The notes under the pieces: model-generated
Databases searched by the model: none
Seen by the model: only the letters and a program-made list of their open reading frames with translations
What the model was told of the DNA's origin: nothing
Source: Hippasteria phrygiana
Lineage: Eukaryota > Echinodermata > Asteroidea > Valvatida > Goniasteridae
Assembly: GCA_037893225.1 (NCBI GenBank)
Contig: JAZGUH010000207.1
Span: forward strand, 1,674,001 to 1,738,000
DNA length: 64,000 nt
Reading direction: 5' to 3'
Position numbers and translations under genes: made by a program
Shown: positions 8,222 to 56,745 of the stretch, piece after piece
Numbering within the stretch: the stretch's first letter is position 1
How the letters are laid out: the number at the start of each line of letters is the position of its first letter

Positions 8222-8242
8222 TGGTGACTTACACAGGATAAC

Positions 8243-26072: not shown

Positions 26073-26226
26073 TACGAGTTGGCCAAGGTACTACGACTTG
26101 GCCAAGGTACTACGAGTTGGCCAAGGTACTACGAGTTGGCCAAGGTACTACGAGTTGGCCAAGGTACTACGAGTTGGCCAAGGTACTACGAGTTGGCCAA
26201 GGTACTACGAGTTGGCCAAGGTATAG
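26073..26226 (+). repeat. 19-bp minisatellite, about 8 copies
   Basis: Unit TACGAGTTGGCCAAGGTAC repeats about eight times with almost no variation. The unit length is not divisible by three and contains no stop in any forward frame, so all three frames are open and give the same 19-residue repeat. This is not evidence for a protein. Confidence 0.92.
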
Positions 26227-27135
26227 TCGGACTCCCTATTATCGCGGCAACTCTTATCGCGGCATCGGAAATTCCTTTTTTTTCCAGTGCCAAAACTCTT
26301 TCGACTGGCAATTTGATATCCAATTCATCAAGCATTAAGGACTTTCTGCTGATTTGTGTAAAAAAATGACGATTAAAAAATGTTATGTCGGGACTTTTAA
26401 CGATTTTTAATAAATATTCACGTTTTCCAAAACTTGTACATTTTGCCTCACCGTGTCTGCTAAAAGGTACCGTCTATATTTTAACATGAATCTTTAATAG
26501 TGCTCTGTCCATAGAAGTTCCATTGTCTGGTTCCCCATTCTACAGCTGCAAATGCAAAATGACGCCGAAGGACGATATTTCCACCGCGAAATCGTAGAAA
26601 CATTTACGGGATCAAAATAAGGACAGTGCGGTAAAACAAATAAAACGACGCACCGTGTAAAGTGAATAGCGCCCCCAATCGTCAATCAGTAGACTTGTCT
26701 CAGTGAATTTTGTCGCCTTCGAGGGGGGACAGGGTGTTAAGAAATCATCTTGCAGGGCCTAATCGTCTTTAATCAACTTGAACTTTACACTTACAGGGAA
26801 AATATCAGACTTTATTCAGGGGATGTTTTGGTCAAACATTAACCATGAATAAAAAAGTTGAAATCATTGTAAAAAAACACTTCCCACATACCGCGATAAT
26901 ACAGAGTCTGTACTCCGCCGAGCAATGACGAGCAATGACGAGCATGTCTATTTTCACAGGCATCGCATGGGAATAAACCAAACCACCGTCGGACTTTTTA
27001 TGTCAGTTTAAAAAAAGCAAGAGTTAAATACAACACAAAAGACAGGACAATTCGGGAAGGTTAGTGAGCAATCTCTATTCCGATCGGGAAACGTGATGTC
27101 ACCCTGATAAGTACCGCGGTAATACAGCGTCCCAT

Positions 27136-27478
27136 CCTACTACGAGTTGGCCATCCTACTACGAGTTGGCCATCCTACTACGAGTTGGCCAAGGTACTAC
27201 GAGTTGGCCAAGGTACTACGAGTTGGCCAAGGTACTACGAGTTGGCCAAGGTACTACGACGAGTTGGCCAAGGTACTACGACGAGTTGGCCAAGGTACTA
27301 CGACGAGTTGGCCAAGGTACTACGACGAGTTGGCCAAGGTACTACGACGAGTTGGCCAAGGTACTACGACGAGTTGGCCAAGGTACTACGAGTTGGCCAA
27401 GGTACTACGAGTTGGCCACTACGAGTTGGCCAGGGTACGAGTTGTCCAAGGTACGAGTTGTCCAAGGTACGAGTTGAC
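27136..27478 (+). repeat. 19/22-bp minisatellite, about 16 copies
   Basis: The array starts with units ending GGCCATCC, continues with the 19-bp unit GAGTTGGCCAAGGTACTAC, then with 22-bp units that add GAC, and ends with degenerate GAGTTGTCCAAGGTAC units. The internal order suggests stepwise local amplification of variants. Confidence 0.92.
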
Positions 27479-28463: not shown

Positions 28464-28471
28464 CTATTCTC
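28464..28471. repeat. Target-site duplication, left copy
   Basis: CTATTCTC here and at 42801-42808 flank the large element. If the terminal T of the right end is counted as host sequence the duplication is 9 bp (TCTATTCTC). Confidence 0.88.
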
Positions 28472-28858
28472 ACCTGGCGGAAGCTAGCCCGAGATTCAGC
28501 ACGCGATTCAGCCTGCGATTCAGCCCGCGATTCAGCCCGCGATTCGCAATAGGGCCCGCGATTCGCCCGATCAGAGCAGCCGCATATAGAAAACTAGAAT
28601 CCATCCGACAAAAGGAGTTTTTTTTTTTTATGAAATCACTGGATTCAGGCAACGAATTTTCGAAAAATATCAAGAAATTACAAACCAATTTTGCTTGAAT
28701 TTTCAGAATAGGTATAGGCAAAGCTGTACATATTATACTGAACGCTATTTTATGTGTATTTTTTATGAAATAATTTGTCAATTCGCGAGGGCCCATTTCA
28801 AAAGCTTCTCTACATCAATTCCTTTCGGCTCAGCACAATAGCTTCTGTTTAAAAGAAA
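28472..28858. repeat. Left unique terminal inverted repeat with subterminal 12-mers
   Basis: It pairs with 42415-42800. Just inside the tip the 12-mer GCCCGCGATTCA and variants (GAGATTCAGCAC, GCGATTCAGCCT) repeat about six times between 28487 and 28568. Clustered subterminal repeats are typical transposase-binding sites. The rest is AT-rich. Confidence 0.85.
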
Positions 28859-31800
28859 GTGTACCGCACATGTTTTGGAAAATTCACATTTTTCTTTCAT
28901 ATTCATAATTCCCACCTTCCTGGGCACACTTAATTTCAGCAAGGGCCTATTCCAAGAATGGCTTCTGCTCCAAATAGCCGCTTAAAGGCGGACCATTTTT
29001 CAGAACATTTGAAAATGCGTTATTAAGAGTTTCGGGTGGAATGCCGTCTTTGAGAAAAAGTGTACCGCACATGTTTTGGAAAATTCATATTTTTCTTTCA
29101 TATTCATAATTCCCACCTTCCTGGGCACACTTAATTTCAGCAAGGGCCTATTCCAAGAATGGCTTCTGCTTCAATTGGCCGCTTAAAGACGGACCATTTT
29201 CCAGAATATTTGAAAATGCGGTATTTGGAGTTCGGGTGAAATGCCGTCTTTGAAAGAAAGTGTACCGCACACGTTTTGGAAAATTCATATTTTTCTTTCA
29301 TATTCCTAATTCTCACCTTCCTGGGCACACTTAATTTCAGCAAGGGCCTATTCCAAGAATGGCTTCTGCTCCAATTAGCCGCTTAAAGACGGACCATTTT
29401 TAAGAACATTTGAAAATGCGTTATTAAGAGTTTCGGGTGGAATGCCGTCTTTGAGAGAAAGTGTACCGCACATGTTTTGGAAAATTCACATTTTTCTTTC
29501 ATATTCATAATTCCCACCTTCCTGGGCACACTTAATTTCAGCAAGGGCCTATTCCAAGAATGGCTTCTGCTCCAATTGGCCGCTTAAAGACGGACCATTT
29601 TCCAGAATATTTGAAAATGCGGTATTTGGAGTTCGGGTGGAATGCCGTCTTTGAAAGAAAGTGTACCGCACACGTTTTGGAAAATTCATATTTTTCTTTC
29701 ATATTCCTAATTCCCACCTTCCTGGGCACACTTAATTTCAGCAAGGGCCTATTCCAAGAATGGCTTCTGCTCCAATTAGCCGCTTGAAGACGGACCATTT
29801 TCCCAGAATATTTGAAAATGCGGTATTTGGAGTTCGGGTGAAATGCCGTCTTTGAAAGAAAGTGTACCGCACATGTTTTGGAATATTCATATTTTTCTTT
29901 CATATTCATAATTCCCACCTTCCTGGGCACACTTAATTTCAGCAAGGGCCTATTCCAAGAATGGCTTCTGCTCCAATTAGCCGCTTAAAGACGGACCATT
30001 TTTAAGAAAATTTGGAAATGCGGTATTGTAGTTCGGGTGGAATGCCGTCTTTGAGAGAAAGTGTACCGCACATGTTTTGGAAAATTCATATTTTTCTTTC
30101 ATATTCATAATTCCCACCTTCCTGGGCACACTTAATTTCAGCAAGGGCCTATTCCAAGAATGGCTTCTGCTCCAATTAGCCGCTTAAAGGCGGACCATTT
30201 TTCAGAACATTTGAAAATGCGTTATTAAGAGTTTCGGGTGGAATGCCGTCTTTGAGAGAAAGTGTACCGCACATGTTTTGGAATATTCATATTTTTCTTT
30301 CATATTCATAATTCCCACCTTCCTGGGCACACTTAATTTCAGCAAGGGCCTATTCCAAGAATGGCTTCTGCTCCAATTAGCCGCTTAAAGACGGACAATT
30401 TTTAAGAACATTTGGAAATGCGGTATTTGGAATACCGTCTTTGAGAGAAAGTGTACCGCACATGTTTTGGAATATTCATATTTTTCTTTCATATTCATAA
30501 TTCCCACCTTCCTGGGCACACTTAATTTCAGCAAGGGCCTATTCCAAGAATGGCTTCTGCTCCAAATAGCCGCTTAAAGGCGGACCATTTTTCAGAACAT
30601 TTGAAAATGCGTTATTAAGAGTTTCGGGTGGAATGCCGTCTTTGAGAAAAAGTGTACCGCACATGTTTTGGAAAATTCATATTTTTCTTTCATATTCATA
30701 ATTCCCACCTTCCTGGGCACACTTAATTTCAGCAAGGGCCTATTCCAAGAATGGCTTCTGCTCCAATTAGCCGCTTAAAGACGGACAATTTTTAAGAGAA
30801 TTTGGAAATGCGGTATTTGGAATACCGTCTTTGAGAGAAAGTGTACCGCACATGTTTTGGAATATTCATATTTTTCTTTCATATTCATAATTCCCACCTT
30901 CCTGGGCACACTTAATTTCAGCAAGGGCCTATTCCAAGAATGGCTTCTGCTCCAAATAGCCGCTTAAAGACGGACCATTTTAAAGAAAATTTGAAAATGC
31001 GGTATTTGGAGTTTCGGGTGGAATGCCGTCTTTGAGAGAAAGTGTACCGCACATGTTTTGGAAAATTCACATTTTTCTTTCATATTCATAATTCCCACCT
31101 TCCTGGGCACACTTAATTTCAGCAAGGGCCTATTCCAAGAATGGCTTCTGCTCCAATTGGCCGCTTAAAGACGGACCATTTTCCAGAATATTTGAAAATG
31201 CGGTATTTGGAGTTCGGGTGAAGTGCCGTCTTTGAAAGAAAGTGTACCGCACACGTTTTGGAAAATTCATATTTTTCTTTCATATTCATAATTCTCACCT
31301 TCCTGGGCACACTTAATTTCAGCAAGGGCCTATTCCAAGAATGGCTTCTGCTCCAATTAGCCGCTTAAAGACGGACCATTTTCCCAGAATATTTGAAAAT
31401 GCGGTATTTGGAGTTCGGGTGAAATGCCGTCTTTGAAAGAAAGTGTACCGCACATGTTTTGGAATATTCATATTTTTCTTTCATATTCATAATTCCCACC
31501 TTCCTGGGCACACTTAATTTCAGCAAGGGCCTATTCCAAGAATGGCTTCTGCTCCAATTAGCCGCTTAAAGACGGACCATTTTTAAGAACATTTGAAAAT
31601 GCGTTATTAAGAGTTTCGGGTGGAATGCCGTCTTTGAGAGAAAGTGTACCGCACATGTTTTGGAAAATTCACATTTTTCTTTCATATTCATAATTCCCAC
31701 CTTCCTGGGCACACTTAATTTCAGCAAGGGCCTATTCCAAGAATGGCTTCTGCTCCAATTGGCCGCTTAAAGACGGACCATTTTCCAGAATATTTGAAAA

Positions 31801-33376
31801 TGCGGTATTTGGAGTTCGGGTGGAATGCCGTCTTTGAAAGAAAGTGTACCGCACACGTTTTGGAAAATTCATATTTTTCTTTCATATTCCTAATTCCCAC
31901 CTTCCTGGGCACACTTAATTTCAGCAAGGGCCTATTCCAAGAATGGCTTCTGCTCCAATTAGCCGCTTGAAGACGGACCATTTTCCCAGAATATTTGAAA
32001 ATGCGGTATTTGGAGTTCGGGTGAAATGCCGTCTTTGAAAGAAAGTGTACCGCACATGTTTTGGAATATTCATATTTTTCTTTCATATTCATAATTCCCA
32101 CCTTCCTGGGCACACTTAATTTCAGCAAGGGCCTATTCCAAGAATGGCTTCTGCTCCAATTAGCCGCTTAAAGACGGACCATTTTTAAGAAAATTTGGAA
32201 ATGCGGTATTGTAGTTCGGGTGGAATGCCGTCTTTGAGAGAAAGTGTACCGCACATGTTTTGGAAAATTCATATTTTTCTTTCATATTCATAATTCCCAC
32301 CTTCCTGGGCACACTTAATTTCAGCAAGGGCCTATTCCAAGAATGGCTTCTGCTCCAATTAGCCGCTTAAAGACGGACAATTTTTAAGAACATTTGGAAA
32401 TGCGGTATTTGGAATACCGTCTTTGAGAGAAAGTGTACCGCACATGTTTTGGAATATTCATATTTTTCTTTCATATTCATAATTCCCACCTTCCTGGGCA
32501 CACTTAATTTCAGCAAGGGCCTATTCCAAGAATGGCTTCTGCTCCAAATAGCCGCTTAAAGGCGGACCATTTTTCAGAACATTTGAAAATGCGTTATTAA
32601 GAGTTTCGGGTGGAATGCCGTCTTTGAGAAAAAGTGTACCGCACATGTTTTGGAAAATTCACATTTTTCTTTCATATTCATAATTCCCACCTTCCTGGGC
32701 ACACTTAATTTCAGCAAGGGCCTATTCCAAGAATGGCTTCTGCTCCAATTAGCCGCTTAAAGACGGACAATTTTTAAGAGAATTTGGAAATGCGGTATTT
32801 GGAATACCGTCTTTGAGAGAAAGTGTACCGCACATGTTTTGGAATATTCATATTTTTCTTTCATATTCATAATTCCCACCTTCCTGGGCACACTTAATTT
32901 CAGCAAGGGCCTATTCCAAGAATGGCTTCTGCTCCAAATAGCCGCTTAAAGACGGACCATTTTAAAGAAAATTTGAAAATGCGGTATTTGGAGTTTCGGG
33001 TGGAATGCCGTCTTTGAGAGAAAGTGTACCGCACATGTTTTGGAAAATTCACATTTTTCTTTCATATTCATAATTCCCACCTTCCTGGGCACACTTAATT
33101 TCAGCAAGGGCCTATTCCAAGAATGGCTTCTGCTCCAATTGGCCGCTTAAAGACGGACCATTTTCCAGAATATTTGAAAATGCGGTATTTGGAGTTCGGG
33201 TGAAGTGCCGTCTTTGAAAGAAAGTGTACCGCACACGTTTTGGAAAATTCATATTTTTCTTTCATATTCATAATTCTCACCTTCCTGGGCACACTTAATT
33301 TCAGCAAGGGCCTATTCCAAGAATGGCTTCTGCTCCAATTGGCCGCTTAAAGACGGACCATTTTCCAGAATATTTG
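28859..33376 (-). repeat. Left array, about 23 copies of a ~200-bp unit
   Basis: Counting the marker GTGTACCGCAC gives 23 copies at a spacing of 199-201 bp, or 189-191 bp for a short variant that lacks the TTCGGGTGG segment. Two long blocks, from 29461 and from 31643, are near copies of each other (offset 2182 bp, then 1982 bp after one unit is missing), so a higher-order duplication is present. Each unit carries a 68-codon open frame on the minus strand. It is a by-product of repetition, starts with TTG and matches nothing I know. Confidence 0.93.
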
Positions 33377-33412
33377 AATCTGTGACTGAATACACTGAAA
33401 GGTGTTATAGAA

Positions 33413-35476
33413 TTGTTACTGGTATTAAAGGCAAGGGAGAACGATTTGAAAAAAACACACGTTCATTCCTGTGTCAGTCACTTCGTGAAAAACAGTGCCA
33501 AAATGTGCAGGAAGTATTATCATTCCAACTTTCGTGATGCAATGTATTGGATTGGTCTTCTCGTACAAGCAAGCACCCTTGACGAAATCGATGAAATCAT
33601 ACTGTCTATGACAATAATAACATGTTCGGAGTTTGCAACGGATCTTGTAAAATCAAACTTTGAGAAACTAAAATCTAAAATTGAACAGCAGAATTCCACC
33701 CAAAATGATTACTTGGAAGAGAATGTATCTGAACACGCCGATGGAGAGGGAGACCCTTCCACATCAGACTTCCACAACTTGGCTGAGAGCGAAACAAGCA
33801 GCCTTGATATTTCGGAGGACGAATATATTCAAAAAGGATACAACTCACCATTTAAGGCTCATTTTCAAGGGATTATCGAGCTAGGAAAAAGGGAAATTGA
33901 CAAATATGGCAAGGGTACAAACACTGCAGTACAGCATCTCAAAAATCCCTACTTAGGGAAAGAATTTCTGAATTATCTTTTGCAATTTCCACTCTCAAAC
34001 ATAGCTAGCTGGTCAGCACTTTTACTACATGATCATGGAAGGCACGGAACATCGCAGATTTATGAAAACTATTCAAAGATGTACAGGGTTCTAGAAAATT
34101 CAAAATTTCAGAATATATCAAGGGACAATCGGACACAAGGGATAGTTGAAAAATCCATGCAAGAGACGAAAAGAGCGAAATTGATGTACAATAGGGTTGG
34201 AAAATTGATTGATTTCGTTCTCATTTACGAAAGAGACATGCTCCCCCTACAAAGGGAATTCGTTGAAGCATTCTGCACCTCTAAACGGACCATCCGTAAA
34301 CGATCTTTGAAACTGTCTACTGAGAAATGGTCCAAACGTCCAAAAACAAGCACACCAACAAATAAAGGTGTCTACCTTACTCCCCCAACTCAGGAATTGC
34401 GGTTTAAAGACGGGTCAAACAAAAAAAGGGGAAAGCAAGAACAACCAAAACCGGAAAGCGCAAACGCCTTTCTTCACAAAGTGAAAAAGAACCACTCGTC
34501 TAAACACAAGAAAACCGCAGTCGTGGACACGACAAATCAGTCAACATCGTCTTTACTCAGGGGGATTTCAAACAATCAAGTATCTTGTTGGTGGATTTCA
34601 ACCATCCAAGCTGTTCGACCATTCATTGATGCAACAAAAATCAATGTTGCTAAGTTTCAAGGAAGCGAAGTATTTCTTTGGCGAAACCTATTGAAGCTTT
34701 TTGAATCATTAAACAATGGAAATACATCGGCTGTTCCATTCCACGAAGTGAAGCCATTGGTAGAAGAGAGTGCATTGCAAATGGGAATTAATTCCAAACA
34801 CCAGCAAGATGCTGCCGAATTTTATTCGCAACTGATTGTACCTTTTTGGGGGGAGTCTTGTCTCACCAACGAAATAGAAATTATAAAATCAGTGATGTGC
34901 CTACGTTGTGACGAAAGCGAACCAACAGAAAATTCAAGTTCGGGAGTGTTGCCGGTTCCTCTGAATAAATCGACTTTAGATAAATGCATTCAACAGGTTT
35001 TTGAAGATGAAATGATTTCGGACGTAAACTGTGATTTTTGCCGCGAGACATTGTGTAAAAAGATCATGACAACGCGCATCGTAAATTGTCCGTCTGTGTT
35101 AGTCGTGCAACTACTACGGACCCGTGTCGTTGAAAACAAACTTGAAAAAATTACTACAGAAGTTCTCCCCAGTGTAGAAATAGATTTACGCCGATTCTGT
35201 TTGAACAAAACACCCGCCGTTTACCGCCTGAGATCTGTAATAACGCACGAGGGTCAATCCCTACAAAGCGGACATTATAAAGCCTTTGTTAGGGAAAATT
35301 TGTACGGTACTGGTTCAGTCACGAAATTCGACGACTCACGGGTAGACCGCATAGGCACGTTTGCTTTTACCACCCAGATATCGGAATCTGGTTACATATA
35401 CTTTTTTGAAAGAACAGATGTTCACAGGAAAGACAAAGACTGCACGGGCTCATGCACTTCAGATGACAATTTCGTG
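33413..35476 (+). CDS. Exon A: transposase-like tail plus C19 (USP) domain
   Basis: An in-frame stop at 33383 precedes this exon, only 7 bases inside the array edge. The first in-frame ATG is at residue 31, inside what looks like a conserved helix, so 33413 (TTG) is only the limit of what can be assigned. Cys box GISNNQVSCWWISTIQAV, the QQDAAEF box and His box THEGQSLQSGHY follow USP order and spacing, but the fingers are short. The zinc ribbon is intact. USPs remove ubiquitin from proteins. Here the target could be the transposase itself or a host factor limiting it. Confidence 0.85.
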
Positions 35477-36300
35477 GTAAGCGATAAGGAGAGAGAATTT
35501 GTGAACATTCTATGGTGTTCGCTCAATGAAAAAACCTGCATAGCGTTGCAGTCGAAAACACAACGAACACCGAGTTCTTAACATTTTCCCAATTGGCAAC
35601 GATTAATTCTTCTCCCTCCCCTGCTATTGTGAAGCGCCTGAAACATGCATACACAAATTATCAACCAGGATGGTTGGGAGAAGGAGTGATAGATTTTTAC
35701 CTGAACCAGCTTTGCAAACTGTCACATAATGATCCCCACCAGAAAAGAAAGTTTGGGTCCGTGCAGTGCTTTGTGACCAAGAAGATATTGCATAATAAAA
35801 TAACTCCAGAAACGTATCGATCAGTGGCCAAACACTGCTTTGTAGGTATGCGTTTCTGCGAGGTGATGATATTTCCCCTATTAGAAAATATGCACTTCAC
35901 CCTGTACGCCATCGACACTAAAAGCAGCAGGATAGATTGTTTGGATTCCATGAGTGACAGGAAAGACACGAGGCAGAAGAGGTTAGCCCATGGTCATGCA
36001 TTCAGGGAGTTTTTTCAGAACGGTCTAATCAAGAGATACTGGAATAATACTCACGGTGTTCTTCAGTGTGAAAAAATGATTAACATAAGACAAGCACCCT
36101 GTCTGCAGCAAACAGATTCAGCAAGTTGTGGTGTTTATTGCTGCTTGTTTGCCGAGGAAATGTGTCTGGGAGAGAGAAAACTTCACATAGGCAATGATAG
36201 TGAAGAACTCCGAATGTATCTCACGATTCAGCTAATACAACGATCCAACATTGTTGACCCTCAGCTTCAACAATTATATTCAACTTATATGAATTTGTAA
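33413..36300 (+). CDS. Transposase C-terminus fused to USP and Ulp1 proteases (two exons)
   Basis: Two open segments (33413-35476 and 35635-36300) join through a predicted intron 35477-35634 with donor GTG|GTAAGC and a pyrimidine-rich acceptor ending GTGAAG, both phase 0. Numbering from 33413, residues 14-40 contain C-H clusters (HVHSCVSHFVKN) and residues 178-290 contain GRHGTS and RTQGIVEKSM, whose Glu is a candidate last DDE residue. A basic linker follows. Residues 380-670 form a C19 ubiquitin protease with Cys392, QQDA at 464-467, zinc pairs C496/C499 and C540/C543, His621 in SGHY and FDD at 639-641. The second exon is a C48 Ulp1 domain. No ATG occurs before residue 31, so upstream coding sequence is missing or lies in an unseen exon. 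Confidence 0.82.
35477..35634 (+). other. Predicted 158-nt intron joining USP and Ulp1 exons
   Basis: The donor GTAAGC, a branch-like GATTAAT and the tract TTCTTCTCCCTCCCCTGCT before GTGAAG are all present. Both reading frames are open beyond the splice sites, to 35580 and back to 35530, so they overlap by 51 bases in -1 relation. A -1 frameshift at the A6 run 35529-35534 is an alternative, but the run does not form a canonical slippery heptamer in the right phase. Confidence 0.65.
35635..36300 (+). CDS. Exon B: Ulp1/SENP-like (C48) cysteine protease domain
   Basis: The sequence WLGEGVIDFYLNQL matches the Ulp1 entry helix (WL-D--I--YL). The catalytic set is visible in order: His of ENMHFTLYAID, Asp of CLDS, Gln and Cys of LQQTDSASCGVYCC. 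C48 enzymes remove SUMO or related tags. The domain begins before any in-frame ATG, so it must be translated as part of the upstream polypeptide. The stop at 36298 overlaps an AATAAA. Confidence 0.87.
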   Translation, partial: RLKHAYTNYQPGWLGEGVIDFYLNQLCKLSHNDPHQKRKFGSVQCFVTKKILHNKITPETYRSVAKHCFVGMRFCEVMIFPLLENMHFTLYAIDTKSSRIDCLDSMSDRKDTRQKRLAHGHAFREFFQNGLIKRYWNNTHGVLQCEKMINIRQAPCLQQTDSASCGVYCCLFAEEMCLGERKLHIGNDSEELRMYLTIQLIQRSNIVDPQLQQLYSTYMNL

Positions 36301-36304
36301 TAAA
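36299..36304 (+). terminator. Poly(A) signal AATAAA overlapping the stop codon
   Basis: AATAAA starts at the second base of the TAA stop of the protease gene. Use would require cleavage about 15-25 bases downstream, giving a very short 3' untranslated region. Confidence 0.55.
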
Positions 36305-37978
36305 TAAGATGAACCCTAATGACAATTTGCGTCATTTTGGTATTTTACAATATTATCTAATCTCTGTTGGTGCAATGTATTGATTATGCTTGATCTTGCC
36401 TTTGACAAGTACAATCGCTTCATTTAAAACTTTATATCACATTGGAAAGGCTCTTATAATTTATATTCATATGCAATCGGGAAATCACCTTTTTAACGTA
36501 ACACTGAAATTTAGAAAGCTGCATGCTACACTGGGTAAAGTGAAACAATTTGCATCTGACTGGTCATACACCTATGACGTCACATTGTTTACGGAAGCTT
36601 GCCAAATATTGTCCTCGTGTAGCGTTCATTCTATTGCGTGGTTTGCTGTTGAGCTGTCAAGACGTCGTGCAGACAGCACCGCTTGTTATATTAATTTCAC
36701 TTTTGGAATTTGTTTTAATGCTTTCCTTTTAACCTTAATTGAATTTGTATAGATTTGTTTAAATAGCTTTTAGTAATACATTGTAGTTCAACTTATATTT
36801 TTCCAAATTCTTTGTGTGTTTTACGTGTCACTAACATTGGTAGCTTAGGGCCTATACATAAATGTTGATGATTTTTTAATTTACGATTTATTCTCTGCGC
36901 ATGAATTTAAGTATTTCTGTCACAGTCATATTTAAGCGCCTTCGTCATAACATTTTGCACTTTCTCAAATCATTTCAATTGTCTGACTTGCATTTAGTAT
37001 TAAGCAAGAACATTATTAGTTTTTCCGGTTTTGATCACACATTTTGTTTGTTAATTTCGAGTACGTGTAACAATTAATCTTTTTGAAATTTCAGATTTGA
37101 ACATTTTTTTATTCCTTTCTCATATTAACTTGCTGTTATTAAACTTTGATTGCGAAAGTTGTGATTTAAAGGTGATCATGGCCGATAAACGTAGCAAACC
37201 TAACCGTTCTTTGGAGGATGTTTTTCAGTTGTTTTCAGGGGGAGGCTGTCCTGTTGGAATGAGTCGTGACTAGCGGCGAACTGTTGGAAGATTTGCAAGC
37301 TGCTTCAGACTATATAGAAGGTATAATGCCAAAGATGTATACGTGTCCATATAACCATTCGAGTTTCTTTTAGGATTCATTGCAAGTTCAACTGATGAGT
37401 CATGAATTTGACGAAAGGGCAATTAGCAGCATTGAAAATGGAACTCTTCACAAACATTGGTTCTTTGGTTTACAAACATTGGCTCAATATTTTCAAGTAA
37501 AAATAAATCGCAATTCAAATTGTTTTTAACTTGACAATTGCCCTCAATTTGAAAAGGGCTAAGTAAGCTGCTGATTGGCCTCTTGAACACCGCATGATGT
37601 GTATAAAATTGAACAAACTTAAACATAATTCACCGGTGTCTGTCTTCATCAGGGTTCATGGGCGGCGATAACGAGGTGAGGGACGGAGGGACACGTCCCC
37701 CAATATTTTGGGAGGAGGGGTCGGCTATGGCAGTGTCCCCCCCTCCCCCCAATAATTTCGTGAATACGCAAAGATCGGCACACACTTTCAAATATTTCCC
37801 AGGATACAGAAGATGTACACCGAGTGGAAAATGCTTAACAATTATTCTTGGGTGTCTGCTTTTTTCCTCCGTCCCCCAACCTTGACGACAACTCGCCGCC
37901 GCTGTCGGGGTTCACAAAGCTGCATGCACATTCATTGTTGTGTGCAACCCGTTTATCAGTTATATTGGATGATTATTA
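36305..37978. other. Right half of the transposon core, mostly non-coding
   Basis: No domain was recognised. Open frames at 36390-36752 lack coding character. A short ATG frame at 37178 is listed separately. A GC-rich patch with GGGACACGTCCCCC-type symmetry lies at 37660-37760. Confidence 0.5.
37178..37273 (+). CDS. Short ATG frame MADKRSKPNRSLEDVFQLF, unassigned
   Basis: The frame has 31 codons with a charged, N-terminus-like composition. It ends at TAG, but the +1 frame continues with ELLEDLQAASDYIEG up to a donor-like GAAG|GTATAA at 37321. It may be a frameshifted first exon left from another protein of the element. It has no homologue that I recognise. Confidence 0.3.
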   Translation: MADKRSKPNRSLEDVFQLFSGGGCPVGMSRD

Positions 37979-38091
37979 GGCCGTGTCCGAAATGGGCGTC
38001 TAGAGCTACAGCTACGGCTACGTCACGCGTAGTTGTAATGGACGAACACCTATAGACAATATAGCCATAGACAAGCGATTCGGACGCAGCT
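37979..38091. mobile_element. Harbinger-type MITE, copy 1
   Basis: GGCCGTGTCCGAA at one end and TTCGGACGCAGC at the other, with a TTA duplication on both sides (37976-37978, 38092-38094). A 3-bp TWA duplication fits PIF/Harbinger. It is inserted in the core of the large element and is a reverse-orientation relative of 59827-59935. Confidence 0.7.
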
Positions 38092-38271
38092 TTAAGATAT
38101 ATTAATTGTACACTTTTAGGGTTTACATATTAATTTCAAAATAAAAATAATCGGTTCAAAAATTATCTTGCATGTTGGAGCGTCATAGTCAGGGAGGTAC
38201 TACATACTTTACATTGTATTGAACAGATTACCTAAATATACATGTGTATAAATATACATGTGTATACATTT

Positions 38272-41200
38272 TCTCTCAAAGACGGTATTCCACCCGAACT
38301 CCAAATACCGCATTTCCAAATTTTCTTAAAAATGGTCCGTCTTTAAGCGGCCAATTGGAGCAGAAGCCATTCTTGGAATAGGCCCTTGCTGAAATCAAGT
38401 GTGCCCAGGAAGGTGGGAATTATGAATATGAAAGAAAAATGTGAATTTTCCAAAACATGTGCGGTACACTTTCTCTCAAAGACGGCATTCCACCCGAAAC
38501 TCTTAATAACGCATTTTCAAATATTCTGGGAAAATGGTCCGTCTTTAAGCGGCTAATTGGAGCAGAAGCCATTCTTGGAATAGGCCCTTGCTGAAATTAA
38601 GTGTGCCCAGGAAGGTGAGAATTATGAATATGAAAGAAAAATATGAATTTTCCAAAACGTGTGCGGTACACTTTCTTTCAAAGACGGCATTTCACCCGAA
38701 CTCCAAATACCGCATTTTCAAATATTCTGGAAAATGGTCCGTCTTTAAGCGGCCAATTGGAGCAGAAGCCATTCTTGGAATAGGCCTTGCTGAAATTAAG
38801 TGTGCCCAGGAAGGTGGGAATTATGAATATGAAAGAAAAATGTGAATTTTCCAAAACATGTGCGGTACACTTTCTTTCAAAGACGGCATTTCACCCGAAC
38901 TCCAAATACCGCATTTTCAAATATTCTGGAAAATGGTCCGTCTTTAAGCGGCTAATTGGAGCAGAAGCCATTCTTGGAATAGGCCCTTGCTGAAATTAAG
39001 TGTGCCCAGGAAGGTGAGAATTATGAATATGAAAGAAAAATATGAATTTTCCAAAACGTGTGCGGTACACTTTCTTTCAAAGACGGCATTTCACCCGAAC
39101 TCCAAATACCGCATTTTCAAATATTCTTAAAAATGGTCCGTCTTTAAGCGGCCAATTGAAGCAGAAGCCATTCTTGGAATAGGCCCTTGCTGAAATTAAG
39201 TGTGCCCAGGAAGGTGGGAATTATGAATATGAAAGAAAAATATGAATTTTCCAAAACATGTGCGGTACACTTTTTCTCAAAGACGGCATTCCACCCGAAA
39301 CTCTTAATAACGCATTTTCAAATGTTCTGAAAAATGGTCCGCCTTTAAGCGGCTATTTGGAGCAGAAGCCGTTCTTGGAATAGGCCCTTGCTGAAATTAA
39401 GTGTGCCCAGGAAGGTGGGAATTATGAATATGAAAGAAAAATATGAATATTCCAAAACATGTGCGGTACACTTTCTCTCAAAGACGGTATTCCAAATACC
39501 GCATTTCCAAATTCTCTTAAAAATTTTCCGTCTTTAAGCGGCCAATTGGAGCAGAAGCCATTCTTGGAATAGGCCCTTGCTGAAATTAAGTTTGCCCAGG
39601 AAGGTGGAAATTATGAATATGAAAGAAAAATATGAATTTTCCAAAACGTGTGCGGTACACTTTCTTTCAAAGACGGCATTTCACCCGAACTCCAAATACC
39701 GCATTTTCAAATATTCTGGAAAATGGTCCGTCTTTAAGCGGCCAATTGGAGCAGAAGCCATTCTTGGAATAGGCCCTTGCTGAAATTAAGTGTGCCCAGG
39801 AAGGTGGGAATTATGAATATGAAAGAAAAATATGAATATTCCAAAACATGTGCGGTACGGTATTCCAAATACCGCATTTCCAAATGTTCTTAAAAATGGT
39901 CCGTCTTTAAGCGGCTAATTGGAGCAGAAGCCATTCTTGGAATAGGCCCTTGCTGAAATTAAGTGTGCCCAGGAAGGTGGGAATTATGAATATGAAAGAA
40001 AAATGTGAATTTTCCAAAACATGTGCGGTACACTTTCTCTCAAAGACGGCATTCCACCCGAAACTCTTAATAACGCATTTTCAAATGTTCTTAAAAATGG
40101 TCCGTCTTTAAGCGGCTAATTGGAGCAGAAGCCATTCTTGGAATAGGCCCTTGCTGAAATTAAGTTTGCCCAGGAAGGTGAGAATTATGAATATGAAAGA
40201 AAAAAATGAATTTTCCAAAACGTGTGCGGTACACTTTCTTTCAAAGACGGCATTCCACCCGAACTACAATACCGCATTTTCAAATATTCTGGAAAATGGT
40301 CCGTCTTTTAAGCGGCCAATTGAAGCAGAAGCCATTCTTGGAATAGGCCCTTGCTGAAATTAAGTGTGCCCAGGAAGGTGGGAATTATGAATATGAAAGA
40401 AAAATATGAATATTCCAAAACATGTGCGGTACACTTTCTCTCAAAGACGGTATTCCAAATACCGCATTTCCAAATTTTCTTAAAAATGGTCTGTCTTTAA
40501 GCGGCTAATTGGAGCAGAAGCCATTCTTGGAATAGGCCCTTGCTGAAATTAAGTTTGCCCAGGAAGGTGGGAATTATGAATATGAAAGAAAAATATGAAT
40601 ATTCCAAAACATGTGCGGTACACTTTCTCTCAAAGACGGCATTCCACCCGAAACTCTTAATAACGCATTTTCAAATGTTCTGAAAAATGGTCCGCCTTTA
40701 AGCGGCTAATTGGAGCAGAAGCCATTCTTGGAATAGGCCCTTGCTGAAATTAAGTGTGCCCAGGAAGGTGGGAATTATGAATATGAAAGAAAAATATTAA
40801 TTTTCCAAAACATGTGCGGTACACTTTCTCTCAAAGACGGCATTCCACCCGAACTACAATACCGCATTTCCAAATTTTCTTAAAAATGGTCCGTCTTTAA
40901 GCGGCTAATTGGAGCAGAAGCCATTCTTGAAATAGGCCCTTGCTGAAATTAAGTGTGCCCAGGAAGGTGGGAATTATGAATATGAAAGAAAAATGTGAAT
41001 TTTCCAAAACATGTGCGGTACACTTTCTTTCAAAGACGGCATTTCACCCGAACTCCAAATACCGCATTTTCAAATATTCTGGGAAAATGGTCCGTCTTTA
41101 AGCGGCTAATTGGAGCAGAAGCCATTCTTGGAATAGGCCCTTGCTGAAATTAAGTGTGCCCAGGAAGGTGAGAATTATGAATATGAAAGAAAAATATGAA

Positions 41201-42414
41201 TTTTCCAAAACGTGTGCGGTACACTTTCTTTCAAAGACGGCATTTCACCCGAACTCCAAATACCGCATTTTCAAATATTCTGGAAAATGGTCCGTCTTTA
41301 AGCGGCCAATTGGAGCAGAAGCCATTCTTGGAATAGGCCCTTGCTGAAATTAAGTGTGCCCAGGAAGGTGGGAATTATGAATATGAAAGAAAAATGTGAA
41401 TTTTCCAAAACATGTGCGGTACACTTTCTCTCAAAGACGGCATTCCACCCGAAACTCTTAATAACGCATTTTCAAATGTTCTTAAAAATGGTCCGTCTTT
41501 AAGCGGCTAATTGGAGCAGAAGCCATTCTTGGAATAGGCCCTTGCTGAAATTAAGTGTGCCCAGGAAGGTGAGAATTAGGAATATGAAAGAAAAATATGA
41601 ATTTTCCAAAACGTGTGCGGTACACTTTCTTTCAAAGACGGCATTCCACCCGAACTACAATACCGCATTTTCAAATATTCTGGAAAATGGTCCGTCTTTT
41701 AAGCGGCCAATTGAAGCAGAAGCCATTCTTGGAATAGGCCCTTGCTGAAATTAAGTGTGCCCAGGAAGGTGGGAATTATGAATATGAAAGAAAAATATGA
41801 ATATTCCAAAACATGTGCGGTACACTTTCTCTCAAAGACGGTATTCCAAATACCGCATTTTCAAATTTTCTTTAAAATGGTCCGTCTTTAAGCGGCTAAT
41901 TGGAGCAGAAGCCATTCTTGGAATAGGCCCTTGCTGAAATTAAGTGTGCCCAGGAAGGTGGGAATTATGAATATGAAAGAAAAATATGAATATTCCAAAA
42001 CATGTGCGGTACACTTTCTCTCAAAGACGGCATTCCACCCGAAACTCTTAATAACGCATTTTCAAATGTTCTGAAAAATGGTCCGCCTTTAAGCGGCTAA
42101 TTGGAGCAGAAGCCATTCTTGGAATAGGCCCTTGCTGAAATTAAGTGTGCCCAGGAAGGTGGGAATTATGAATATGAAAGAAAAATATGAATTTTCCAAA
42201 ACATGTGCGGTACACTTTCTCTCAAAGACGGCATTCCACCCGAACTACAATACCGCATTTCGAAATTTTCTTAAAAATGGTCCGTCTTTAAGCGGCTAAT
42301 TGGAGCAGAAGCCATTCTTGGAATAGGCCCTTGCTGAAATTAAGTGTGCCCAGGAAGGTGGGAATTATGAATATGAAAGAAAAATGTGAATTTTCCAAAA
42401 CATGTGCGGTACAC
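38272..42414 (+). repeat. Right array, about 21 inverted copies of the ~200-bp unit
   Basis: The marker GTGCGGTACAC recurs from 38459 to 42403. The orientation is opposite to the left array. One unit (marker at 39850) has lost part of its sequence (GTGCGGTACGG), and two T for G changes (AAGTTTGCC) mark local sub-families. The unit order does not mirror the left array, so the arms have evolved separately. Confidence 0.93.
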
Positions 42415-42800
42415 TTTCTTTTAAACAGAAGCTATTGTGCTGAGCCGAAAGGAATTGATGTAGAGAAGCTTTTGAAATGGGCCCTCGCGAATTGACAAAT
42501 TATTTCATAAAAAATACACATAAAATAGCGTTCAGTATAATATGTACAGCTTTGCCTATACCTATTCTGAAAATTCAAGCAAAATTGGTTTGTAATTTCT
42601 TGATATTTTTCGAAAATTCGTTGCCTGAATCCAGTGATTTCATAAAAAAAAAAACTCCTTTTGTCGGATGGATTCTAGTTTTCTATATGCGGCTGCTCTG
42701 ATCGGGCGAATCGCGGGCCCTATTGCGAATCGCGGGCTGAATCGCGGGCTGAATCGCAGGCTGAATCGCGTGCTGAATCTCGGGCTAGCTTCCGCCAGGT
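42415..42800. repeat. Right unique terminal inverted repeat
   Basis: It is the complement of 28472-28858 with only a few differences (for example A-run length near 42648). Near-identity of the two ends indicates recent gene conversion or recent insertion. Confidence 0.88.
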
Positions 42801-42808
42801 CTATTCTC
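42801..42808. repeat. Target-site duplication, right copy
   Basis: CTATTCTC, identical to 28464-28471. Confidence 0.88.
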
Positions 42809-49026: not shown

Positions 49027-49864
49027 CCGAGACCACGGCGAAGCAATTCACCAGCCTCTGACGATACCGGATTCCAGCGGGAACATACCCAACATTCTTA
49101 TAGGGGCCAGTAATCAGCAAGGTACGCCTATTCAACCGAGCTTTGTACCTTACAATTCCGCATGCCGGGATAGGTACCAGGTGATTTCACAAAACCTCAA
49201 GCTACGCAGCAAGGGATGACCGCACCCGTGCCATACGCCATGCCAACAACGTATTTTATGAACCAATAGGGTATGCCAACCCCTTGGATGACGTGCCACC
49301 GACCAACAACCAACAATGCCAACCACATACGGATACAGACCATGCCTCCGCGGTGTCCCGAGAACACGACTCGGACATTCCAGACAACGTCAGTATCAAC
49401 AGATACACTTGATACGATATTTCGGGCCGCATCGAAAAGACACTGGACCGGCCATCTCATCTATAGTCATAGACTGGTGGGGTGAGTTAAGAACTAATAA
49501 ACTATCATCAAAAATGAACTTCAGAGTCATGCAGTGTCTCTGGAACAAGAATTCTTTTTCAACCATCAGACCTATCTTCGGCTGTTAAAAAAGTGTTCAA
49601 ACAAGCCAATGTTACCCTTGTGAATGCGGATGACAGGCTTCGTACGTCCCATGGACATATTTTGAAATCGGCCATGCCTCTACTCCATCTCGTCGATGCC
49701 TTAATTAGCAGACCCGGAAAGTCCAGATGTGGTAAACAAAGAACTGATATAATTTGTTTTCTGCTCTGATTTTGCTCGGATCGACCTAGCCTATCTATTT
49801 CATGACAGCAGTTGTTTAATGAGGTGCTTGATCGACGTTTTGATAACGACGCAATTCACCTTCT

Positions 49865-51067
49865 ATGAGTGAGTTATTTGGCTCCACCATGATTAAAGAC
49901 ATCGAAGAGACAGAAAAAGCTAACAAAGTTGCCTCCAAAATTACTAAGAGTAGTTTTGCATCTAGTAGGAATAGATATACCCCTTACAATCGTTTTGATA
50001 ACAAGACAAACCGACGAAGCTTCACCCGTTCATCTCGTGGCTCTTGCAACAGCAACTACAGAGGCTCATCAGATGCCTATAAACAGAAGTCACGCAGTTC
50101 TTTTCGTCAGTATAGGCCCTACAGACAAGAATTCAAAAAACTAAGTTGTTCTCCTACTTCAATCAACATCACGATCGCGGCAGGTCGGATTCAAATGTTT
50201 GTACACAATTGGGAACTGATAACGAAAGATCAGTGGATTTTAACTACTGTACAACAGGGTTACCAGTTGGAACTGACACACACGCCTTCCAAGGAGCGGA
50301 CACCGGTTACACGTGCCCAGAACAAGGTACAAGAACTCACATTCAGTGCAGAAATTCAGAACCTCATAGACAAGGGAGTAGTGACACAAGAAACATGGGT
50401 AGTATGTCAGTTCATTTCTTCAATGTTCTTGGTGCCCAAAAAGACGGGGGATTTGCGACCAGTCCTCAACGTCCGCGGCTTGAACAAATTCATGAAGTAC
50501 ATTCATTTAAAGATGGAAGGAATCAAAGTGGTAACAGATATATTAATCCGCAATGACTTCATGGCAGCAATAGATCTGAAAGACGCTTATTTTTCTATTC
50601 CAGTCGCTACACCAGACCGCCAATTCCTCCGATTCATTTGGAAGAACATTGTGTACCAATTTTCTTGTCTGCCGTTTGGACTACAAGCCATAATTTCTCA
50701 GTGTCGGGAGGTAAGAGATGCAAAACACTTGACAGTTCGAGACTTGGCCAGCCTCATCGGACGTATGTCTGCTTCAATTCAAGCAGTCCTCCCGGCGCCA
50801 CTGTTTTACCGTTATCTCCAACACGACAAGATCCTAGCACTTCGCAAAGAGAACTCGTACGAAACTCAAGTTTGTCTGTCGCAAGAATCGAGGGAAGAAC
50901 TGAACTGGTGGATAGAATCTCTCCAATCCTGGAACCGGCATTATCTATGTCACCAAACCCCGACGCTTTGCATAGACAGACGCATCCAAGATGGGCTGGG
51001 GTGCCTGCTTCGGACAAATGTCAACCGGCGGGCGATGGACACTGTTAGAACAGAAGGAACTATCTAG
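49865..51067 (+). pseudogene. DIRS gag tail and reverse transcriptase with catalytic deletion
   Basis: A 400-codon frame. Residues 1-95 are basic and Ser/Arg-rich (gag end). RT starts with AAGRIQMFVHNWELIT and continues through FLVPKKTGDLRPVLN, IDLKDAYFSIPV and CLPFGL at residues 268-273. It then jumps straight to REVRDAKHLTVRDLASLIG, which belongs after the palm. The segment carrying the YxDD box, roughly 100-150 residues, is missing. The frame stays open by chance. After residue 365 the RNase H frame is broken. Confidence 0.82.
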
Positions 51068-53987: not shown

Positions 53988-56745
53988 TGGGGACTTTAGT
54001 TATGATGTTTCAGTTGACGATGATAGTATGAACTCAAACCCAATTATTTCTTGTTTTGGTTTATTCTAATTGGCGCAACTCATACATGACTCAACACGTC
54101 TCACTGAGTCCACTCAAATCGATCTCATTTTCAGCTCCCATCCAGGGCTAATAAAGGAATGTGGTGTATTACCAGTCCTAATCAGTGACCATTATCTTGT
54201 TTATGGTCAACATAGTTGGAAAACACAAAAAATTAGAGGTCGCTCAATAAATGTTCGATGTCTTACAAATATAGACAATGATGCATTTAAAGTCGACCTC
54301 CTTAATGCACCATGGCAAGATGTACTGGACTCTTATGATGTTGATGAAGCGTGGTGCAAATGGCACTCCATATTTATGAGTATTTTTAACTTTCATGCGC
54401 CAATCAAAACTAAACGTATTCGGGGTGCCTCTTTACCTTGGCTCGATTGCGAAATTCTTAAACTTATGAGACAGCGGGATCGTGCACACAAAATCGCAAA
54501 ACGCTCAGGCTCACAGATCGATTGGGACTCTTACAAAAAGCTGCGGAACATTGTAACTAATAGAATCCGCACTAAGAAGAGTGAATACTATACATCAGCC
54601 ATAGAAGAAAATAAAAGCAATTCATCTATGCTATGGAAAAAACTAAAAGAGGTACTTCCTAAGAAACAGAAAATTGCTCCAAATTCTATCACTTCCCCAA
54701 ATGGAGAAAATATTGACGATCCCACCGACATTGCTGATACATTAAATGAACACTTTTCTACAATAGGAAAACGTACAGCTAGAAATTGCCCATTAAGCGA
54801 ACTTGAAAACAATGATACCTACGCCTCTATCGTTGATTCTCTGGATGAACTTGAAGAATGCACTGTACCTAATATTACAGAAGAGTTCGTTCAAAAGCAA
54901 ATATCATCCATGTCGGTTGGGAAAGCAACAGGTCCGGATGGCATCAGTGTTAAAATGATTAAAATTGCTTCCCCTTATATTACTAAATCTTTAACGTATA
55001 TTTTTAACCTCTCCATAAGATGCGAGCAATACCCTAAAGATTGGAAACACGCCTTGGTAACACCAATTCACAAGGGAGGAGATAAATGTAGTACAAGTAA
55101 TTATCGGCCTATTTCTATACTGCCAATTATCTCTAAGATTCTAGAAAGATGGGTGCACTCGGCAGTATATAGCTACCTTGATGATAACAATTTGATACCT
55201 AGTTGCCAATCGGGATTTAGACCCTTGTACTCAACTGAAAGCACTCTACACGATTTAACAAACAAGTGTTTTGAGGCTATGGAGCAAGGTAAAGTTACAG
55301 ATAGCGTGTTCATAGATCTCAGTAAAGCTTTTGATTGTGTGGATCATGTAATCCTACTAGGCAAATTGAAGAAGCTGAATTTGTCATCTTCTGTAATTAA
55401 TTGGTTTAAGTCGTATATACCTAGGCGGTCGTAGTCAGCCTGTAAATATTAAGGGCACAGTATCGAAGGTCTTGCCCATAGACATAGGCGTTCCACAAGG
55501 GTCGATCTTAGGGCCACTTTTATTCATTGTTTATAGTAGTGATTTTCCATCTTGTATACCCCAAAATTGCAACTTATTTATGTATGCAGATGACTCCACG
55601 TTAACGTGTAGCTCCTCTAGTATTACGAAATAGAAAGGAACTTGAATGTAGCTCTTGCTAGTATTCACAACTGGTGCCTAAGAAACAAACTAGCATTAAA
55701 TGCCAACAAAACCAAATGTATGCTTATTGGTTCAAGGCAGAAAATATCCAACGTCGACCTGAACGTGTGCATTGCTGATAAGGTTATCGAAAAAGTGAAA
55801 TCTTGTAAATGCTTGGGTGTAGTTGTTGATGAAACATTAAGTTGGGGTACACATGTTGAATACGTAAGGAAGACTGTTTCGTCTAAATTGGGTGTGTTAA
55901 ACAGAATTCGTGATTACGTTCCCCAAAGCAGCCTGCACACACTCTTTGTAAGTTTAGTTATGCCATCTTTAGAGTATTGCTGTACGGTGTGGGGAGGAAG
56001 GTACATATCTATATCTCACGACAATACCCTCAACAAATGTCTAAAAAGAGCCGCACGGATAATCCTTAAATGTACCTCCCTCACCCCCTCAGCGGATATG
56101 TTTGCCAGACTAAATTGGATTCCTTTTAATGATAGAGTTCAGTCCAAAAATGTTATCCTTGTTTTCAAAAGCCTTAACAAAATGACTCCTTTGTACATGA
56201 CAAATCTGTTCACACCACTTACAGTGATTCGTGAAACACGACAATCGACCCAAATGGCACTGAAAGTTCCTTTCGCCAAAAAGGAATGCTACGTGACAAG
56301 TTTCGCTGTGAGTGGTACCAGTATATAGAATAATCTGCCTGAACAAATGAGAACCATAAACTCCTTTAGTACATTTAAATCGGAGCTACGTAAAGCCATC
56401 TATCAGTGATATTTCTGTCATTTACGCTGATCTGCGGAGTTATAAACTTGGTTGCCAAAATACTTTGGAGCCGGATGGGAATTTCCCCTTGTTTTTCACC
56501 CTATAAAATTTTTTTTTGCGGCTTTTTGCCCATCCCGTAAATCAGCAATAGGCTTCTGGAGAGTTGAAAAGTTAACCGAAAATTGATTTATTTGTGTAAA
56601 CATTATTGTATTTGTTTAAATATTTTGTATGAATGTGTAAATATTCAGTTTTAACTAATAATATGCAGGGCCCCAATGGAAACCAGTTTTAAACTGTTTG
56701 GGCATACTCTGGGTAAAGAAATGTAATAAATAAATAAATAAATAT
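53988..56745 (+). mobile_element. L2/CR1-type LINE, 5'-truncated, inserted in the recombinase domain
   Basis: It begins inside the endonuclease (LGDFSYDV, LISDH) and contains RT motifs ATGPDGIS, YRPISILPIISKILE, SGFRPLYSTESTLHDL, IDLSKAFDCVDH, GVPQGSILGPL and MYADDSTL. It ends in an ATAAATAAATAAATA tail. ATAGC lies on both sides (53983-53987, 56746-56750). In-frame stop at 54067, frameshifts near 55425 and 55630 and a nonsense codon at 56326 show that it is inactive. Confidence 0.88.

What the first reader, a model, noticed from the sequence alone, without database searches (positions are those of the whole stretch)
28472..42800. Complete 14.3-kb fold-back transposon whose arms are ~200-bp tandem arrays
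Seen directly: identical 8-bp flanks, complementary tips, unique inverted ends, and two opposite arrays of about 23 and 21 units around a 4.9-kb core. Known fold-back elements (FB/NOF, TU) have tandem-repeat arms, but I know of none this large that carries a USP plus Ulp1 gene. This may be an undescribed element type or a new branch of Mutator-like elements.
Basis: partly seen in the sequence, partly recalled or inferred. Interest (0 to 1): 0.95.

Follow-up and report, generated by a model that had tools for sequence, protein, structure and literature searches.

The report
Deletion copy of satellite-armed jumping gene
This 14.3-kb stretch is a recently moved, crippled copy of a DNA transposon whose two ends are long satellite-like arrays, and a relative elsewhere in the same genome encodes one giant protein that joins a transposase to a histone-reading finger and to enzymes of the kind that strip ubiquitin and SUMO.

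Summary
In detail: an element at 28472-42800, CTATTCTC on both sides, 381-382-bp outer inverted ends, two opposed arrays of ~200-bp units (~23 and ~21) and a 4,886-bp core. It is a mobile family: the host genome holds at least 40 near-identical ends, 15 facing pairs; 14 of 15 pairs have exact 8- or 9-bp duplications. The 'USP plus Ulp1 gene' is the 3' half of a single-frame PHD finger-transposase-USP-Ulp1 protein: copy C276 (31.6 kb, 9-bp TSD) has that frame open over 2,064 codons, its core 99.4% identical to the window's. The window copy lost the 5' half by an internal deletion at a 4-bp microhomology; at least 11 copies share this deleted core, so it was presumably moved in trans. Five copies with 0-1 core substitutions have 27 to 87 units in one arm. 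Closest known: Rehavkus (PHD, satellite-bearing inverted termini, 9-bp TSD); likely kin, but not tested against a reference transposase, and no Pfam MULE match was found. New variant of a known kind; the PHD-DDE-USP-Ulp1 fusion, array length and element size are the unusual parts.

The parts
28464..28471 (.). left 8-bp target site duplication CTATTCTC
28472..28853 (+). left outer unique inverted end (382 bp), tip ACCTGGCGG
   Evidence: at least 40 near-identical copies in the genome
28486..28545 (+). five subterminal 12-bp repeats AGCCCGCGATTC (left)
   Evidence: TRF
28854..33378 (+). left (5') array of ~200-bp units, 22.6 unit lengths
33375..33378 (+). deletion junction array/transposase; 4-bp TGAA shared by the array unit and the intact gene
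   Evidence: alignment to C276 starts at 33375
33375..34561 (+). remnant of the transposase C-terminal part (from residue 860 of P0005, after both presumed catalytic Asp; keeps CxxH and the presumed Glu), with a small frame-changing insertion near 33424
33386..35581 (+). ORF1, 731 codons stop to stop: transposase remnant plus USP domain
34562..35407 (+). USP (ubiquitin-specific protease) domain, PF00443 E=3.2e-27, profile positions 2-254 of 254
   Evidence: residues 393-674 of ORF1
35530..36300 (+). ORF2, 256 codons, Ulp1/C48 domain (PF02902 E=4.1e-13), in another frame than ORF1 because of a 1-base deletion near 35529
36301..38264 (+). 3' non-coding part of the core; 36310-38230 has 17 full-length matches in the genome, a lower bound
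38265..42419 (-). right (3') array of ~200-bp units, 20.7 unit lengths, opposite orientation
42420..42800 (-). right outer unique inverted end (381 bp)
42727..42786 (-). five subterminal 12-bp repeats (right)
   Evidence: TRF
42801..42808 (.). right 8-bp target site duplication CTATTCTC

Best explanation
The window holds a non-autonomous copy of a large terminal-inverted-repeat DNA transposon. A candidate autonomous relative (C276) encodes one ~2,000-residue protein: repeat-rich N-terminus, PHD finger, DDE-type transposase, USP-type deubiquitinase, Ulp1-type deSUMOylase. Shown: the window core is 99.4% identical to the 3' part of C276; the copy has lost the 5' half of the gene through a deletion that joins the left array to the transposase at a 4-bp microhomology; the family inserts with 8-9-bp target duplications and moved recently. 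Inferred: the transposase acts in trans on the shared ends (tip plus subterminal 12-bp repeats) and moves elements by cut and paste; interrupted gap repair made the deletion; unequal exchange or slipped gap repair between array units changes arm length at or near transposition; the PHD finger guides the complex to H3K4-methylated chromatin; the USP and Ulp1 domains strip ubiquitin and SUMO at donor or target, opposing SUMO-dependent silencing or steering break repair. Kinship is most likely with the Rehavkus branch of Mutator-like transposons.
For: Paired ends with TSD at 14 of 15 loci, 8 bp (9 loci) or 9 bp (5 loci). C276: open frame of 2,064 codons inside a facing pair of the same ends with 9-bp TSD GCTACGTGG; PHD 6e-7, UCH 1.1e-27, C48 2.2e-11 in one protein. 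Same order in one frame in the C82 and C463 lineages, and PHD-transposase-part of USP in C437 before its frame ends. Motifs with presumed D766, D845, CxxH and E1117 are in 7 of the 8 proteins scanned, the eighth (P0002) being Ulp1 only; D766, D845 and E1117 are invariant in the 7-row alignment A2. Window versus C276: 4,866 identities, 16 mismatches, 12 gap bases, homology starting at the shared TGAA. At least 11 copies carry the same deleted core (731-aa rows); the 7 of them read with both ends each have a TSD of their own, so the deleted form itself has moved. Five copies with 0-1 core substitutions have 27-87 units in the 3' arm. PHD best PDB matches include DIDO1, BPTF, PHF2, PHF8, TAF3; that these read H3K4 methylation is recalled. 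Passages on Rehavkus and on Ulp1, OTU, PHD and C19 domains in transposases.
Against: No Pfam transposase domain, MULE included, matched at E up to 10 (HMMER's filters drop most matches above about 0.1); no PDB transposase matched the transposase profile; the structure model was useless (pLDDT 34), so the DDE fold rests on motifs. The distant relative P0004, not in the motif scan, lacks the CxxH in register. No Rehavkus sequence was available. TSDs are 8 bp in 9 of 15 pairs, while Rehavkus is listed with 9 bp. Ulp1 does not occur in the Rehavkus paper searched. No empty site, expression or excision was seen. Only C276 of 6 same-lineage copies compared over the transposase-USP-Ulp1 region is unbroken. 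Satellite arms were shown for two lineages; the 2,000 bases read 3' of C82 have no TRF array. Array lengths could be distorted by assembly.
Confidence: 0.84

Rival explanations
1. It is not Rehavkus-like but a separate, undescribed DDE superfamily that converged on satellite arms and a PHD finger.
For: No match to any Pfam transposase; D845-E1117 spacing of 272 residues, which from memory is longer than in typical MULEs; TSDs of 8 as well as 9 bp; Ulp1 absent from the text of the Rehavkus paper searched.
Against: PHD plus satellite-bearing inverted termini plus 8-9-bp TSD is close to the combination described for Rehavkus; the fish relative P0003 has transposase, weak Ulp1 and PHD; Ulp1 and PHD domains are recorded in Mutator transposases.
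Confidence: 0.25
2. The satellite arrays are a pre-existing satellite into which a gene was inserted, or a chance pair of arrays, not a transposon.
For: Arrays of ~200-bp units resemble satellites.
Against: Near-identical outer ends, TSDs at 14 of 15 paired loci and the same order of parts at other sites.
Confidence: 0.01
3. The window copy is a domesticated or cargo-carrying element whose USP and Ulp1 genes serve the element or host apart from any transposase.
For: At least 11 copies keep the 731-codon frame, and the 7 cores read differ by at most 10 substitutions; deletion derivatives of a second lineage on C696 and C639 keep a 1,235-codon open frame.
Against: In C276 both domains are fused to the transposase; in the window lineage ORF2 is cut off by a frame change and the start of the gene is missing; the derivatives are so recent that open frames need no selection.
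Confidence: 0.07
4. Arm-length differences are mainly assembly collapse or expansion, not biology.
For: No reads were seen; one locus (C760) has palindromic flanks that look artefactual.
Against: Unit variants keep their order and are shared exactly between copies at different sites; length changes are internal block duplications or deletions.
Confidence: 0.15

Closest known systems
Rehavkus (Mutator relative; Rehavkus-1_TC, Rehavkus-1_HR)
   Same: PHD finger with the transposase; 26-400-bp inverted ends; minisatellite; Rehavkus-1_TC has a 164-bp satellite unit in its inverted termini, 9.5 kb; TSD 9 bp (passages of PMC6446971 and PMC10218199)
   Different: here TSD 8 or 9 bp, USP and Ulp1 fused in the same frame, core-bearing copies with 9-87 units per arm instead of mostly five and eight, end-to-end sizes up to 33.7 kb; sequence kinship untested
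Tetris (Drosophila virilis fold-back)
   Same: inverted ends = outer domain plus ~220-bp tandem units of varying number, 8-10-bp TSD, non-autonomous, assigned by its authors to Mutator (passages)
   Different: no coding core and no autonomous partner found; far shorter ends (up to 1,735 bp)
FB/NOF of Drosophila and TU of sea urchin (names and details recalled; a passage of PMC4079207 mentions fold-backs of both hosts)
   Same: fold-back structure with repeats in the arms
   Different: short repeat units as recalled; no PHD-USP-Ulp1 protein known to me
Galileo (P superfamily)
   Same: internally repetitive long inverted ends whose tandem repeats expand and contract (passages)
   Different: 7-bp TSD, ends up to about 1.26 kb, P-type transposase
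Ginger1, Mutator with Ulp1, and transposase_11-C19 proteins
   Same: DDE transposases fused to OTU, Ulp1, PHD or C19 (USP-type) domains (passages of PMC2836005)
   Different: that paper says OTU or Ulp1 but not both in Ginger1; the passages describe none with USP and Ulp1 together

Membership tests
Fold-back transposon (structural class) | long inverted ends made largely of tandem repeats around a core or none | tested here: met
Fold-back transposon (structural class) | mobile: several copies with target duplications | tested here: met
   14 of 15 paired loci
Rehavkus | PHD finger in the transposase | tested here: met
   PF00628 in P0005-P0008, E 6e-7 to 2.4e-6, (the window copy itself has lost it)
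Rehavkus | satellite or minisatellite in or beside the inverted termini | tested here: met
   trait; second lineage; no array seen in 2,000 bases 3' of C82
Rehavkus | 9-bp target site duplication | tested here: inconclusive
   5 of 15 pairs 9 bp, 9 of 15 8 bp, 1 of 15 without
Rehavkus | transposase groups with Rehavkus transposases in a tree | not testable with these tools
   no Rehavkus reference sequence was held
Mutator-like elements in the strict sense | MULE transposase domain (PF10551) | tested here: not met
   no match at E up to 10 in P0001, P0002, P0005-P0010 or at E up to 1 in P0003, P0004; the genome-wide search for PF10551 did not complete
Mutator-like elements in the strict sense | 8-11-bp TSD | tested here: met
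   range
P superfamily / Galileo | 7-bp TSD (Galileo) | tested here: not met
   8-9 bp; trait
Ginger1 | Gypsy-type integrase core | tested here: not met
   no integrase match in Pfam at E up to 10
KDZ / Zisupton | KDZ transposase domain | tested here: not met
   no such Pfam match at E up to 10; family traits recalled

The most novel reading that the evidence does not exclude
A distinct clade of DDE transposons (a sister of Rehavkus or a new superfamily) uses one chromatin-editing transposase: a PHD finger that finds H3K4-methylated promoters, a USP that removes ubiquitin and an Ulp1 that removes SUMO. Its transposition is coupled to recombination that can lengthen a satellite arm from one copy to the next, so the family acts as a factory that seeds satellite DNA.
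Probability: 0.25. Interest if true: 0.87.

Novelty: new variant of a known kind. Interest (0 to 1): 0.72.

Why it matters
A transposase that carries its own histone reader, deubiquitinase and deSUMOylase would make it directly testable whether a DNA transposon fights SUMO-based silencing or steers repair. Near-identical copies with 27 to 87 satellite units in one arm are a natural series of how transposons give birth to satellite DNA, a question raised for Tetris and for Rehavkus-1_TC. A candidate autonomous copy and many deletion derivatives in one genome make a two-component system that can be tested in the laboratory.

Tried and rejected
Structure prediction of the relative P0001 with four aligned sequences gave pLDDT 33.8 and was not used for any fold search. 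PDB search with the transposase profile A3 returned 3 unrelated weak rows. NCBIfam: nothing for P0005 or P0003 at E up to 1. Viral contigs (A1) and prokaryote genome contigs (P0001): no relative confirmed. The 3' flank of C82 showed no TRF array in the 2,000 bases read, only diverged direct and inverted repeats, so satellite arms are shown for two lineages only (the window's, and that of C696, C935, C639 and C208); either arms are not universal or the array lies further out. Considered and dropped: a programmed frameshift between USP and Ulp1 (C276 reads through in one frame, so a deletion is simpler); insertion of a gene into a satellite; the C760 copy as a normal insertion (its flanks are inverted, 299 of 300 bases, and its right flank is 95 of 100 identical to that of C363). 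Not achieved: the empty-site search and the PF10551 search of the genome; a tree against Repbase Rehavkus; the host's name.

Papers: passages only (find) from PMC6446971, PMC10218199, PMC13359780, PMC1634758, PMC4079207, PMC3573991, PMC2836005, PMC2528002; search listings with starts of abstracts only for all others, the SUMO/piRNA papers included; Yuan and Wessler 2011 was not held.
Full report
What is there. The element runs from 28472 to 42800 (14,329 bp) between two copies of CTATTCTC. Its outermost 381-382 bp at each end are unique sequence in inverted orientation; in a comparison of 388 bases of each end 387 of 387 aligned bases are identical apart from one T-run indel. Five 12-bp repeats lie near each tip. 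Inside are opposed arrays of ~200-bp units, 22.6 and 20.7 unit lengths, and between these a 4,886-bp core. The 148-residue frames seen twice in the left array reflect an internal duplication: units 4-6 recur exactly as 15-17, and units 8-12 as 18-22 with 3 of 5 exact.

It is a mobile family. A search of the 944-Mb host genome with the first 429 bases found 40 full-length matches at 98-100% identity on 25 contigs; only 40 of 1,075 candidates were scored, so this is a lower bound. Fifteen contigs hold two facing ends, ten hold one among the scored matches. The flanks of all 15 pairs were read: 9 have exact 8-bp and 5 exact 9-bp direct repeats; the 15th, C760, has inverted flanks. Combining left and right flanks of different loci gave 7 bp or more in 1 of 210 combinations, C363 with C760, whose right flanks agree in 95 of 100 bases and are probably one locus, C760 being a palindrome of doubtful reality.

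Core and autonomous partner. ORF1 (33386-35581) holds a complete USP domain and ORF2 (35530-36300) an Ulp1 domain. Two database relatives, P0001 and P0002 (51% and 48% identical), show that the region before the USP belongs to a longer protein and that the USP end and Ulp1 are continuous. Searching the host genome with P0001 gave 57 matches (46 of 161 candidates scored): among them 11 deleted cores like the window's and matches over nearly the whole of P0001 on C437, C463, C82, C101, C276, C423 and C400. C276 has an open frame of 2,064 codons inside a 31.6-kb facing pair of the same ends with the 9-bp TSD GCTACGTGG; all but 6,094 bp of that element were read. The frame reads: N-terminal QNESLENVITASP-type repeats, PHD finger, a ~750-residue transposase region, USP, Ulp1. 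C463 (1,758 codons) and C82 (2,023 codons,833 of them read) have the same four parts in one frame; C437 has PHD, transposase and part of the USP before its frame ends. Motifs around D766, D845, CxxH and E1117 are in 7 of 8 proteins scanned, P0002 being Ulp1 only; P0004 was not in that scan and lacks the CxxH in register. In the scanned proteins the USP and Ulp1 motifs are kept wherever the sequence reaches them, except in P0003, which has no USP and only a weak, divergent Ulp1. That these are catalytic residues is inferred by analogy.

How the window copy arose. Against C276 the window core matches from 33375 with 4,866 identities, 16 mismatches and 12 gap bases. At the junction TGAA is shared by the array unit and the gene; upstream the window has array where C276 has the rest of the transposase, the PHD finger and 9.3 kb of 5' sequence in which no array unit was found; its 5' array lies further out (rows near 1,376,000). 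So one internal deletion removed the 5' half, with both presumed catalytic aspartates. A 4-base insertion in the transposase remnant and a 1-base deletion between USP and Ulp1 break what is left. The 7 core-bearing copies read in full (of at least 11) show the same truncation and the same two-frame state. The other C276-lineage copies compared (C423, C400, C654, C770, C53) carry frame-changing indels or stops, so C276 is the only unbroken one of 6. A second lineage, by eye close to C463, made its own deletion derivatives: on C696, C935, C639 and C208 ~200-bp units 63-66% identical to ours by BLAST (C696 consensus: 117 of 205 aligned positions) run into the transposase at P0001 residue ~112, and C696 and C639 keep 1,235 open codons. 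Internal deletion from array into gene has therefore probably happened at least twice.

Arms change much faster than the core. Of the 10 elements read completely, 7 have the core and 3 (C760, C126, C313) are arrays only. The 7 cores form two groups: window and C117 (1 substitution in 4,886 bp) and C723, C268, C235, C168, C67 (0-1 substitutions); 8-10 between groups. In the second group the 5' arm has 22 counted units in the same order with a few unit variants, while the 3' arm has 87, 38, 27, 42 and 53; the outer ten and the innermost two unit types agree in 5 of 5, and the differences are internal, such as a 14-unit block present twice in C67. In the first group the 20 right-arm units are identical and the left arm has 22 or 9. 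Equal cores with such unequal arms mean that arm length changes at or close to transposition, or by frequent exchange afterwards; the data do not tell these apart, and assembly error cannot be excluded without reads.

Mechanism. Shown: 8-9-bp target duplications, shared ends between a candidate autonomous copy and deleted copies, spread of the deleted form itself, recency. Inferred: transposition in trans; interrupted gap repair for the deletions; unequal exchange or slipped repair for arm growth. The PHD finger is closest in the PDB to DIDO1, BPTF, PHF2, PHF8 and their like, readers of H3K4 methylation as far as I recall, which would direct the complex to active promoters. Ulp1 and OTU domains in other transposases have been proposed to act in transposition through repair pathways (PMC2836005 passages); SUMO takes part in silencing in animals (search listing only). 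Which role holds here is open.

Comparison with the known. Rehavkus is described with a PHD finger, 9-bp TSD and 26-400-bp ends, and Rehavkus-1_TC with a 164-bp satellite unit in its inverted termini, mostly five and eight in a row, in 9.5 kb. Not found in the passages read: the USP, the Ulp1, arrays of up to 87 units, sizes up to 33.7 kb (C400, by the distance of its ends). Not tested: sequence kinship with a Rehavkus transposase. Tested and not met: a Pfam MULE match. I therefore call it Rehavkus-like and do not file it as a strict Mutator. Searches for a transposon with both protease domains listed none, within an open-access library only.

Verdict. A real, recently active, satellite-armed DNA transposon family with a four-part transposase; the window copy is a crippled passenger. 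New variant of a known kind.

Noticed in passing
G000 C760:97234-102132 (L011) and C363: Array-only copy whose flanks are inverted copies of each other (299 of 300 bases) and match the right flank of the C363 insertion (95 of 100): a palindrome, either a template-switch product or an assembly artefact.
   Followed up: partly
G000 C220:1983590-1985293 and C363:584783-586486: Two further cores whose match to P0001 starts at residue 416 with a 950-codon open frame: perhaps a third kind of 5' deletion that keeps USP and Ulp1 in one frame.
   Followed up: no
window 7280-8293 (-): 338-codon frame with a RING finger (PF00097, 1.2e-5) and a very weak RAG1 importin-binding match (0.86); perhaps the N-terminal part of a RAG1-like protein.
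   Followed up: no
window 3166-3585 and 4337-4705 (-): Frames with DUF1280 (2.7e-15) and THAP (4.1e-5) domains, perhaps parts of one transposon-derived gene.
   Followed up: no
window 26073-27476: 19-22-bp minisatellites (TACGAGTTGGCCAAGG type) about 1 kb outside the left end of the element.
   Followed up: no
window 37968-38098: About 120 bp in the 3' part of the core match other places in 12 rows at 93-97% in a capped list: a short dispersed repeat nested in the transposon.
   Followed up: no
window 49847-51067, 54070-56328, 57377-58919: Pieces of retrotransposons: a weak RVT_1 match (1.4e-5, below its cut-off) in the first, reverse transcriptase and integrase by eye in the others.
   Followed up: no
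P0003 (Triplophysa rosa, LOC130559383): Fish protein with a related transposase (31% identical to P0001 over 70% of it), a weak Ulp1 match (0.018) and a C-terminal PHD finger: the kinship reaches vertebrates with another domain order.
   Followed up: partly
L057 and L059, 5' part of the C276 element: 126-codon frame that by eye resembles the end of an SGNH hydrolase; no frame longer than that among those listed in 9.3 kb, and no array unit there.
   Followed up: no
window 59030-59417: Tandem repeat of 120 bp, 3.2 copies.
   Followed up: no
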